Shown here: piece by piece, positions 5,026-48,335 of the stretch
Numbering within the stretch: position 1 is the stretch's first letter
How the letters are laid out: every line of letters begins with the position of its first letter
NCBI GenBank assembly: GCA_944322025.1
Contig: CALUOH010000028.1
Location: 1-64,000 of the forward strand
DNA from: an uncultured Bacteroidales bacterium
GTDB taxonomy: Bacteria > Bacteroidota > Bacteroidia > Bacteroidales > Paludibacteraceae
DNA: 64,000 bases
Direction: 5' to 3'
Notes under the pieces: generated by a model
Told to the model about the DNA's origin: nothing
Databases searched by the model: none
What the model saw: the letters and a program-made list of their open reading frames with translations, nothing else
Position numbers and translations under genes: made by a program

Positions 5026-5113
5026 TTCTGCTCTCCATCAACGTATCCGCAACATCATCTGCAAATTCCTCAGCCTTCTTACACATCAGCGCACACTAAA
5101 TCGCACATCTCCG

Positions 5114-5315
5114 TCAAATTACCACTCTCACTACATACGTTTTCACCCTTATAACCCACTGATATACCTAGCATTCACCTTACCTCTCCTTACCTTTCCG
5201 CTACCCCTCCGCTACCCTCTCCTTAGCGGTTCGTTCTTATCTTGCATTTATTGACACAAAAGTGACAAAACGTAAAGCGCATCGCCGTATTGTCTATTTT
5301 ACACCTCAGCCGCCT
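5114..5315 (+). repeat. Dispersed intergenic repeat family A, copy A1
   Basis: This is one of five related copies in the window (others at 10559-10765, 27741-27915, 35470-35655 and, inverted, 48025-48232). It starts with TCAAATTACCACTCTCAC, passes through a pyrimidine-rich part with tandem CCGCTACC units ending CTACCCTCTCCTTAGC, and ends with GTGACAAAACGTAAAGCGCATC and a TATTTTAC motif. No gene is visible in 4949-5416 apart from the terminator and this repeat. Orientation and boundaries come from alignment by eye to the other copies. Confidence 0.75.
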
Positions 5316-5416
5316 CATGCCCGGCCTGCCCCGCCACATCAAGCAACTCCCCATATGAGCCTCCGCCCCCTCACTGCGCCACGTCCCACGCCGCCACCCG
5401 TCCGCCGTCCCTGCCT

Positions 5417-10422: not shown

Positions 10423-10558
10423 AATATCACTATTGAATTTTCTAAATAATCCAACACATCACTCTCCGCCCGCAAAGCGGCGCACACCTCCCACCCCCGC
10501 AGCCGCACAACCGCTCTGCTCCTCGCACACCCACGTCATGCAAATCACACACCAAAGC

Positions 10559-10765
10559 TCAAATCACCACTCCCAGTCACCGCCCGCGCAGCCGTCTAAC
10601 CTCTTGTCTCTCAAGCCATCCACCTAAGCTCCCGCTACCTTTCAGCTATCCCCCGCTACCCTCTCCTTAGCAAAACGCCAATTATGCGACTGATTCGGTC
10701 TAAAAGTAACATAACTTACAGCGCATCCCCGCACTGCCCATATTGCACACCGCACAAACCCTCGG
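10559..10765 (+). repeat. Dispersed intergenic repeat family A, copy A2
   Basis: It aligns with the other copies from TCAAATCACCACTCCCAGTC (shared with the inverted copy at 48 kb), through CTCCCGCTACC and CCGCTACCCTCTCCTTAGC, to a diverged end reading AAAAGTAACATAACTTACAGC. The gap 10423-11051 holds no gene. It contains this repeat, a minus-facing -7 motif and the FKBP promoter. Confidence 0.75.
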
Positions 10766-10891
10766 CGCACCTCCCGCCTCATCTCGCCCCGCCAGTCTGC
10801 ACCTTCGCCACAAACCAAGATAGCGCAAGCCGTACATGATAGCGGCCAACCTGTCCGGTTGCCGCTGCCTGACCGCCGCCCATCTCCGTGA

Positions 10892-27631: not shown

Positions 27632-27740
27632 CTTCTTTTCTCCTCTGTCATTACCTTCATGCCCGCCGTAGCGGAACATCCACTCACACTCTCCTAAATA
27701 TACTCCTCCCTTTTATTCCACACTCCTGATGGTTGCAGAA

Positions 27741-27915
27741 TTACGGGCTTAACCTATTGATATACACAACCCTTACCTAATCTCCCGCTACCTTCCCGCT
27801 ACCCCGCAGCAACCCTCAAGCAAGCAAAACGCTCATCTTGCGCGTTATTCTTTCAAAAAGTGACAAAACGTACAGCTCATCGTCCCGATAGCTGTTTTAC
27901 GCAGCCGGTACAAAA
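27741..27915 (+). repeat. Dispersed intergenic repeat family A, copy A3
   Basis: It starts near GGGCTTAACCTATTGATATAC (shared with A1), contains CCCGCTACCTTCCCGCTACC, then AAAAAGTGACAAAACG and TACAGCTCATCG, and ends in a GCTGTTTTACG hairpin arm. It fills most of the gap between the thioesterase and glmS, starting 12 bp after the thioesterase stop. Confidence 0.75.
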
Positions 27916-27927
27916 TCCGCTGCCCAG

Positions 27928-28365
27928 TCAAAGGCCGTGCGCCGCCCGCCAGTTCTCTATGAACTCCGGAGTCGAGGCTATGAGGTTGCCCTCCGTATCG
28001 GTAAACAGCTGCGTCGTCTCCGCCGTAGCTATCAGTGCGCCGTCCGCAGGGCGCGTTATCGTGTAGTCAAACATCAGCTTGCTCCCGCGGCACCTGTGGT
28101 ATGCTATCTCCACGCTCAGTTCGTCATCTATCGTCGCCACGCTCTTGTACGCTATGTGCATATCCACCACCGGAGCGAGCAGCCCCTCTTTCAGATACGT
28201 AGTATATGCCAGCCCAAACTGCCGTCCGAACTCCTCGCGTGCGTCTTCGAGATACTTGACGTAAGCCCCGTGCCACACCATCCGTATCGAATCCACCTCG
28301 CTGAACCTCACCCGCACAGTCACCGCCGTCCTCAACGCTCCGTCCGCGCCTCTCTCCTCTGCCAT
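27928..28365 (-). CDS. Acyl-CoA/ACP thioesterase, 4HBT hotdog family
   Basis: A 145-residue hotdog-fold thioesterase. The catalytic region VRFSEVDSIRMVWHGAYVKY carries the aspartate, and LEDAREEFGRQFGL is typical of 4-hydroxybenzoyl-CoA thioesterase-like enzymes such as YbgC. It would release an acyl chain from ACP or CoA. The start ATG lies 1 bp after the dehydratase stop, so translation is coupled. It is last in the five-gene block of acyltransferase, ketosynthase, ACP and dehydratase. Confidence 0.86.
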   Translation of the reverse strand: MAEERGADGALRTAVTVRVRFSEVDSIRMVWHGAYVKYLEDAREEFGRQFGLAYTTYLKEGLLAPVVDMHIAYKSVATIDDELSVEIAYHRCRGSKLMFDYTITRPADGALIATAETTQLFTDTEGNLIASTPEFIENWRAAHGL

Positions 28366-33925: not shown

Positions 33926-33936
33926 CTCCTCTCTCG

Positions 33937-34010
33937 CTCTCCCTCTTGGACTTGAACCAAGGACCCTCTGATTAACAGTCAGATGCTCTAACCAACTGAG
34001 CTAAGGAAGA
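33937..34010 (-). tRNA. tRNA-Asn (GTT)
   Basis: A 74-nt cloverleaf on the minus strand. The acceptor TCTTCCT pairs with AGGGAGA (one G-T wobble). The D stem is GCTC/GAGC, the anticodon loop CTGTTAA between TCTGA/TCAGA gives anticodon GTT, and the T stem is CTTGG/CCAAG with loop TTCAAGT. No CCA is encoded. It is identical to the copy 170 bp upstream. Confidence 0.96.
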
Positions 34011-34106
34011 ATTTTAACCCATATCTATTCGGATACATCCGACTGCCGCCTTACACCAAAGCCTCTGACGGCCACCCCACGGCAATCTTCCGCATCCTCT
34101 TTCTTG

Positions 34107-34180
34107 CTCTCCCTCTTGGACTTGAACCAAGGACCCTCTGATTAACAGTCAGATGCTCTAACCAACTGAGCTAAGGAAGA
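34107..34180 (-). tRNA. tRNA-Asn (GTT), second identical copy
   Basis: The same 74-nt sequence and structure as the copy at 33937-34010. It is the promoter-proximal member of the tandem pair. The 96-nt spacer between the copies shows no other gene. Confidence 0.96.
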
Positions 34181-35398: not shown

Positions 35399-35469
35399 CG
35401 GCAAATCCGCACAACACTCTCCCGCACCAAAACGCACATCCTCCTCAATATGCACACTGCCAATACCCA

Positions 35470-35655
35470 CAAAATCGCGCATCCAACCCTTTGACAACCA
35501 AAATCTTCACCTACCCCTCAGCCACCTTTCAGCTACCTCCCCGCTACCCTCAACCAAGCAAGTCTGCATTCTTCGCGCTTATCCGTTCAATTTGTACCGA
35601 AAACAGCAACTCATCTTCTCGGTATCCATTTCATATACCCGCCGCCGCTCCGCCC
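35470..35655 (+). repeat. Dispersed intergenic repeat family A, copy A4 (most diverged)
   Basis: It aligns through ATCCAACCCTTTGACAACC, CCTTTCAGCTACC, CCCCGCTACCCTCAACCAAGC and AACAGCAACTCATCTTCTCGG to TTTCATATACCCGCCGCC. The gap 35283-35764 contains only the B copy, this A copy and a promoter. Confidence 0.65.
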
Positions 35656-35720
35656 TCCCCGTCCACAGCCCCCCGCACATATTACGTGCCATTAAGCCCG
35701 TTTCCTAACCGAACTTTTAT

Positions 35721-47974: not shown

Positions 47975-48024
47975 TATCTGTATCGGCCTGCGGACAGCCC
48001 CCGCGACGGACACGGGCAGGACGC

Positions 48025-48232
48025 GGAGACCCAGCCGGATGCGTAAAACAGGCATCTGTACGATGGGGTTTACGTTCTGACACTTTTGCGTAGAATAAGG
48101 CCGGAAAAGTGCTTTCCGCTAAGGAGAGGGTAGCAGAGGGGGTAACGGCAAGGTAGCGGCAGGCTAAGGAGAAGCCTTGTAAAACAAGGGGTTAGGACAC
48201 AGACAACGCATACACTGGCAGTGGTGATTTGA
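48025..48232 (-). repeat. Dispersed intergenic repeat family A, copy A5 (inverted)
   Basis: Read on the minus strand it runs TCAAATCACCACTGCCAGTG, CTAACCCCTTGTTTTAC, CCGCTACC, GCTACCCTCTCCTTAGCGG, AAAAGTGTCAGAACG, CCCCATCG and TGTTTTACGCATCCGGCTG. It is the only copy in the opposite orientation. The gap 47810-48335 has no other gene. Confidence 0.78.
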
Positions 48233-48335
48233 TAATAGGCTTGTATTTTGACACGCGCCACGGTGCATGACCTCTGCCGTGAGGAGAGGCGGAAATCGGA
48301 GAGAGAGATTTTATTGTCAGATTTATACTACATAT

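What the first reader, a model, noticed from the sequence alone, without database searches (positions are those of the whole stretch)
5114..5315. Five-copy dispersed intergenic repeat family A (about 170-210 bp)
Copies at 5114-5315, 10559-10765, 27741-27915, 35470-35655 (same strand) and 48025-48232 (inverted) align over their whole length. Shared blocks in order: TCAAATCACCACTCCCAGT, CTAACCCCTTG, tandem CCGCTACC units, CCGCTACCCTCTCCTTAGC, a variable ~45 bp, AAAAGTGACAAAACGTACAGC-type text (in parts), CATCG, TGTTTTACGCA. All lie between genes, none contains a transposase, and two (A1, A3) begin or end within about 100 bp of an operon end. In A3 the end can fold (ACAGCTCATCG with CGATAGCTGT), and in A5 different bases pair at the same place (GTAAAC with GTTTTAC, CATC with GATG), which hints at a conserved fold. 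I recognise no known family. A genome-wide structural RNA, a MITE-like relic or a nucleoid/replication site are all possible.
Basis: seen in the sequence. Interest (0 to 1): 0.75.

Follow-up and report, generated by a model that had tools for sequence, protein, structure and literature searches.

The report
Phased intergenic repeat also carried by MITEs
About ninety copies of a 230-base non-coding DNA element lie between the genes of this gut bacterium and of one sister species; some copies travel inside a small transposable element, but most have no transposon ends and yet keep their exact length and a phased 11-base array that changed at the same base throughout each genome, as if an unknown protein reads it.

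Summary
In detail: all five copies are real and belong to a family of ~89 copies in this genome and ~91 in its sister species, Candidatus Aphodosoma intestinipullorum (Bacteroidales). The family is not a structural RNA: 164 aligned copies show only neighbour-to-neighbour covariation and RNAalifold finds no pairs. About 40 of 160 full copies are flush ~330-bp MITEs with terminal inverted repeats (ACGTSAGTTCGAYATAA) matching 14/17 bases of a multi-copy IS982-family element in the sister genome, and matching published ISPg3/MITE239 ends. The other ~120, including all five in the window, have no such ends. They keep a ~230-bp core of almost fixed length (152/160 copies within 1 nt) although copies are only ~55% identical. 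The core holds five exact 11-bp units (CMGCTACCYYC). At 13 orthologous loci one array base differs between the species every time (C>T 11, C>G 2), while the rest of the array keeps locus-specific similarity. This fits a double-stranded, helically phased binding array read by an unknown trans-acting factor and also carried by an IS982-type MITE. The factor, and which came first, are unknown. TIR-less phased core: new variant of a known kind; MITE form: new member.

The parts
5080..5340 (+). copy A1, TIR-less core, between an M3 peptidase gene (+) and an Exo_endo_phos gene (-); orthologous copy at G006 C67:19269
10523..10785 (+). copy A2, TIR-less core, between divergent DUF4254 (-) and FKBP (+) genes; orthologous copy at G006 C67:24747
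27676..27942 (+). copy A3, TIR-less core, between a thioesterase-like gene (-) and a glmS-like gene (-)
35414..35678 (+). copy A4, TIR-less core, between divergent metallo-beta-lactamase-fold (-) and unnamed (+) genes
48005..48267 (-). copy A5, TIR-less core, next to a DUF4494 gene (+); orthologous copy at G006 C31:4943
5171..5227 (+). A1: 11-bp phased array ending in CCCTCTCCTTAGC
10616..10671 (+). A2: 11-bp phased array (one unit 1 bp short)
27769..27825 (+). A3: 11-bp phased array, last unit in the AA.CA-type state (CTCAAGCAAGC)
35503..35559 (+). A4: 11-bp phased array, last unit in the AACCA state (CTCAACCAAGC)
48118..48175 (-). A5: 11-bp phased array (one unit 1 bp long)

Best explanation
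Shown: the family has two forms. About a quarter of the full copies are complete non-autonomous MITEs (~330 bp) with IS982-type terminal inverted repeats around the core. The rest, including all window copies, are the bare ~230-bp core at intergenic sites, many kept since before the two species split. Inferred: the core is a double-stranded DNA site. Its five 11-bp units put the same YTA/CC contacts on one face of the helix about once per turn, so that several subunits of a trans-acting DNA-binding protein (a regulator or nucleoid-type protein) can bind side by side, with fixed-distance contacts in the flanking A/T tracts. Copies are kept for that binding; length is held because contacts must stay in phase, while most single bases are free to drift. 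The specificity of the factor changed after the species split, so every array shifted at the same base. MITE transposition by an IS982-family transposase supplies new copies, which can lose their ends later. The order of events (core captured by a MITE, or MITE ends lost from old copies) is not settled.
For: Two forms: 11-copy flush subfamily; TIR scores in 37 of 159 copies at fixed distance (left ~52, right ~50 bp), 0 in the reversed control at the same threshold. Mobilizer: IS982 transposase (NF033520, E 2.8e-65), 8 pieces in G006, nearly all at contig edges, ends ACGCGAGTTCGGGATAA on both sides. Empty sites in the other species for TIR+ and some TIR- copies. Constraint on the core: 152/160 full copies within 1 nt of the model length at ~55% mean identity; at 22 orthologous loci in the same orientation, 78 substitutions per gap event inside the element against 20 in the 80-bp flanks at equal identity; TIR- copies keep 0.41-0.71 identity to the MITE consensus in the core but 0.32-0.41 at the outermost ends, while TIR+ ends are as conserved as their core. 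DNA, not RNA: covariation only over 1-16 nt, no RNAalifold pairs on either strand; A/T period 5.5 bp in the array above the shuffle limit; larger length changes are mostly about one turn (-9 to -13, +11 unit). Trans-acting reader: 12 of 225 columns differ between species at p<1e-4 against 0 in permutations, most of them in or next to the array; position 132 differs at 13/13 old TIR- orthologous pairs, while the other array columns are more alike between orthologs than between paralogs of one species (0.751 against 0.684, p=0.005), which speaks against gene conversion of the array.
Against: No binding protein has been identified and no expression or binding data exist. The elements lie in tandem, convergent and divergent gene pairs in about the proportions of intergenic length, so no single regulatory role fits the positions. 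Only 13-16 old orthologous pairs carry the coordinated-shift test, and the shifted columns were chosen after seeing the data. Outside the array the periodicity is not significant. No IS982 copy was found in the window's own genome; target-site duplications were not resolved.
Confidence: 0.5

Rival explanations
1. Plain MITE relics: all copies descend from IS982-type MITEs that decayed neutrally; the core has no function for the host.
For: TIR+ copies exist in both genomes at ~80% identity, insertion-like presence/absence between the species, intergenic only, an IS982 partner in G006.
Against: Neutral decay should erase ends and core alike, but TIR- ends are at background while the core is not; indels are four times rarer in the core than next to it; coordinated base shift at orthologous loci.
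Confidence: 0.25
2. The C-rich strand acts as a Rho utilisation (rut) site / terminator zone, mostly suppressing antisense or read-through transcripts.
For: The C-rich strand has 34% C, 12.5% G and passes a simple rut-like rule in 159/161 copies against 2/161 on the other strand; it is antisense to tandem genes 74 times against 25; unstructured.
Against: The rule follows from base composition alone and was not controlled; flanks are also C-rich; Rho sites need neither fixed length nor a fixed base at one position; orientation bias is strongest in the young MITE copies (25:2), so it may be an insertion preference.
Confidence: 0.12
3. Structural or regulatory RNA encoded by the element.
Against: No long-range covariation in 164 sequences (effective number 141), RNAalifold 0 pairs on both strands; no Rfam match in the window other than two tRNAs; present between convergent and divergent genes alike.
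Confidence: 0.04
4. Concerted evolution by gene conversion, or C>T hypermutation from a lineage-specific methyltransferase, rather than a trans-acting reader, explains the species-wide array shift.
For: All copies of one species share the base, as conversion or mutation pressure would give; 11 of 13 changes are C/T.
Against: Other array columns keep locus-specific similarity, two of 13 changes are C/G, and local covariation shows multi-base word switches (TCCTT/AACCA).
Confidence: 0.15

Closest known systems
MITE239 / MITE700 of Porphyromonas gingivalis, with ISPg3-type ends (PMC4596501, Table 2)
   Same: TIR+ copies have nearly the same terminal inverted repeat (ACGTSAGTTCGAYATAA against ACGTGAGTTCGATATAA.. 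and ACGTCAGTTCGA); short, non-coding, intergenic, tens of copies, Bacteroidales.
   Different: Internal sequence could not be compared here; window copies have no TIRs at all; an 11-bp phased, length-constrained core is not described for them in the passages read of that paper. That paper files ISPg3 under IS5; the partner found here is IS982 family by NCBIfam.
BrickBuilt (P. gingivalis MITE with a minisatellite)
   Same: Intergenic MITE with internal tandem repeats.
   Different: 23-bp repeats in variable number and GAGACC ends; here 11-bp units almost always five in number and IS982-type ends or none.
Correia/NEMIS elements with an IHF site; REP/BIME elements that bind gyrase, Pol I or IHF
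   Same: Dispersed intergenic repeats that carry sites for nucleoid or topology proteins (what it works like, as inferred; IHF site in a Correia element: PMC10969869; REP/BIME from own knowledge).
   Different: No palindrome, no RAYT transposase in the genome; array of direct 11-bp units.

Membership tests
MITE | terminal inverted repeats at flush ends | tested here: not met
   not met for the five window copies and ~120 others; met for ~37-40 copies elsewhere in the two genomes
MITE | short, non-coding, multi-copy, intergenic | tested here: met
MITE | matching autonomous element | tested here: met
   for TIR+ copies: IS982 element in sister genome, ends 14/17 identical; none found in the own genome
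MITE | target-site duplication | tested here: inconclusive
   flanks of TIR+ copies read by eye only; empty sites too diverged for base-level reading
Structural RNA family (Rfam-type) | conserved base pairs with compensatory changes | tested here: not met
   no Rfam match
BrickBuilt | tandem 23-bp minisatellite between leader and tail with GAGACC-type ends | tested here: not met
   11-bp units, other ends (PMC4596501)
REP/BIME | short palindrome and a RAYT (Y1_Tnp) transposase | tested here: not met
   no inverted structure in the array; PF01797 absent in G000 and G006
Multi-site DNA-binding array for a nucleoid or regulatory protein (works like) | helically phased repeated motif with constrained spacing | tested here: met
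   11-bp units, 5.5-bp A/T period, length constraint
Multi-site DNA-binding array for a nucleoid or regulatory protein (works like) | bound by a specific protein in the cell | not testable with these tools
   needs DNA pull-down or ChIP

The most novel reading that the evidence does not exclude
The core is the genome-wide binding site of an unknown, fast-evolving Bacteroidales DNA-organising protein that reads 11-bp phased TACC units; each lineage has its own site version (palindromic arrays in two distant genomes, a 50-bp three-unit version in two congeners), and a MITE has captured the site and spreads it.
Probability: 0.3. Interest if true: 0.85.

Novelty: new variant of a known kind. Interest (0 to 1): 0.62.

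Why it matters
Bacterial MITEs are usually seen as decaying parasites. Here most copies of the family have no transposon ends, yet one internal module persists at the same places and orientation in two species with fixed length, and shows a coordinated, species-wide base change. That gives a concrete handle (a 57-bp array as bait) to look for a protein that reads ~90 sites per genome in Bacteroidales, where genome-wide architectural proteins and their sites are poorly known (own knowledge).

Tried and rejected
Protein coding: stops in the plus-strand frames of most copies and throughout the minus strand, rejected. RNA structure: rejected. Diversity-generating retroelement-like adenine mutagenesis: considered because of substitution-only divergence; rejected because several A columns are nearly invariant. 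REP/RAYT: rejected. Bacteroidales promoter reading of TANNTTTG: looked for by eye, not convincing. PF01609 transposases in the own genome turned out IS1380 and IS1182 without matching ends. Wider distribution: profile absent from 392 other Bacteroidales genomes apart from weak hits in G357, though only the best four candidates per genome were scored there. Literature search for 11-bp tandem repeats in Bacteroidetes: 0 papers with all terms. Minus-strand all-frame stops (132/164 copies against 34 in shuffles): real, but probably a by-product of a YTA every 11 bp.

Full report
The five reported copies exist and align; their shared blocks are far above chance. They overlap no predicted protein gene and are not coding. 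A search with one copy found 21 places in the 2.44 Mb genome, a profile from 22 copies found 90, and a final profile over the DNA held found 89 copies here and 91 in one congener. The profile finds nothing in the other congeners except one weak hit, and nothing in 392 other Bacteroidales apart from two weak hits in G357.

Two forms. A search with one locus revealed a flush subfamily of ~330 bp with imperfect terminal inverted repeats (TAACGTCAGTTCGACATAA...). A position matrix of these ends finds them in 37 of 159 copies, at ~52 bp left and ~50 bp right of the core, and never at that score in reversed flanks. The ends match those published for ISPg3, MITE239 and MITE700 of Porphyromonas gingivalis (PMC4596501). 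In G006 an IS982-family transposase occurs as eight pieces, nearly all at contig edges, as expected of a repeated IS in a draft assembly, with ends ACGCGAGTTCGGGATAA on both sides. So the TIR+ copies are best read as IS982-type MITEs. Empty sites in the other species exist for TIR+ and for some TIR- copies. The five window copies have no such ends; conservation falls to zero outside their core.

Constraint. 160 full-length copies differ by substitutions, not by length: net change 0 in 116, -1 in 31, +1 in 5, at a mean pairwise identity of 55% (126 copies). Most one-base gaps sit at one or two columns, and most of the few larger changes are close to one helical turn: -9 to -13, and a gain of one 11-bp unit. 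At 22 orthologous intergenic sites with conserved orientation, element and flanks are equally diverged (65% and 64.5%), but gap events are 0.45 per 100 nt in the element and 1.79 in the flanks. One of these 22 pairs (C18_8201/C3_16753) later proved to lie in neighbouring gaps, each with an empty partner site; it is left out of the tests below. In TIR- copies the core keeps similarity to the MITE consensus while the ends are at background; in TIR+ copies ends and core are alike. Neutral decay of whole MITEs does not predict this.

Not an RNA. On 164 aligned copies mutual information is confined to neighbours (1-16 nt, mostly 1-4), RNAalifold gives no pair on either strand, and Rfam gives nothing but two tRNAs. 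The local signals are switches between short words, e.g. CCCTC[TCCTT or AACCA]AGC.

Anatomy. The best-conserved part is an array of five units of exactly 11 bp (about CMGCTACCYYC) with an A/T period of 5.5 bp above the shuffle limit; outside the array the period is not significant. Similar arrays occur in other Bacteroidales: 82 pattern hits in G357 and 5 in G148, palindromic in the loci read, and a 50-bp three-unit repeat in congeners G007 and G008. These are leads, not shown to be homologous.

Coordinated change. Between TIR- copies of the two species 12 of 225 columns differ at p<1e-4 (0 after label permutation), mostly in the array; position 132 is C in 63/70 here and T in 45/54 there. At 13 old orthologous loci without TIRs it differs 13 times (11 C>T, 2 C>G), while the other array columns and the rest of the core are more alike between orthologs than between paralogs of one species. 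Gene conversion of the array would erase that locus memory. The columns were chosen after seeing the data and the pairs are few, so this is strong but not final.

Context. Elements occur in tandem, convergent and divergent gene pairs in about the proportions of intergenic length. The C-rich strand is antisense to tandem genes (74:25), most strongly in young MITE copies (25:2), whose right end faces a gene's 3' end in 34 of 38 cases: probably an insertion preference. A Rho-site function cannot be excluded, but the supporting rule follows from base composition.

Conclusion. Shown: a large two-species family, a MITE form and a TIR-less form, fixed length, phased array, no RNA fold, coordinated array change. 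Inferred: a dsDNA binding array for an unknown factor. Unknown: the factor, the physiological role, and whether the MITE captured the core or old copies lost their ends.

Noticed in passing
G000 C53:29186 / G006 C132:17095: An orthologous pair whose flanks are >99% identical for over 1 kb upstream, yet whose element differs at 22 of ~226-239 positions without gaps; no closer donor copy was found among the copies compared. Unexplained: local hypermutation or replacement by an unseen copy.
   Followed up: partly
L262, L263, L270, L275, L278, L284, L286, L288, L294 (genome G357); L276, L282 (G148): Dispersed palindromic arrays of 11-bp TACC units, e.g. (GTTACCCTTTA)n with a mirrored half, in two distant Bacteroidales genomes; the loci looked at lie outside long ORFs.
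   Followed up: partly
L305, L309, L312 (L306 in part): A ~50-bp repeat CTCCYTACCCTGTAGYTACCTTCAAGCAACCTTCACCGAAGAAGACTGACA in congeners G007 and G008, again with 11-bp phasing.
   Followed up: partly
L302: An IS982 copy in G006 ends directly against array sequence of the family, i.e. it appears inserted inside one element copy.
   Followed up: no
window 33936-34180 (-): Two tRNA-Asn (GTT) genes in tandem with the same covariance score.
   Followed up: no
G000 C16:39930, C24:11403; G006 C34:12444: Short forms of the element (~119 nt, model positions 68-196); C16:39930 and C34:12444 are orthologous, suggesting a minimal module.
   Followed up: no
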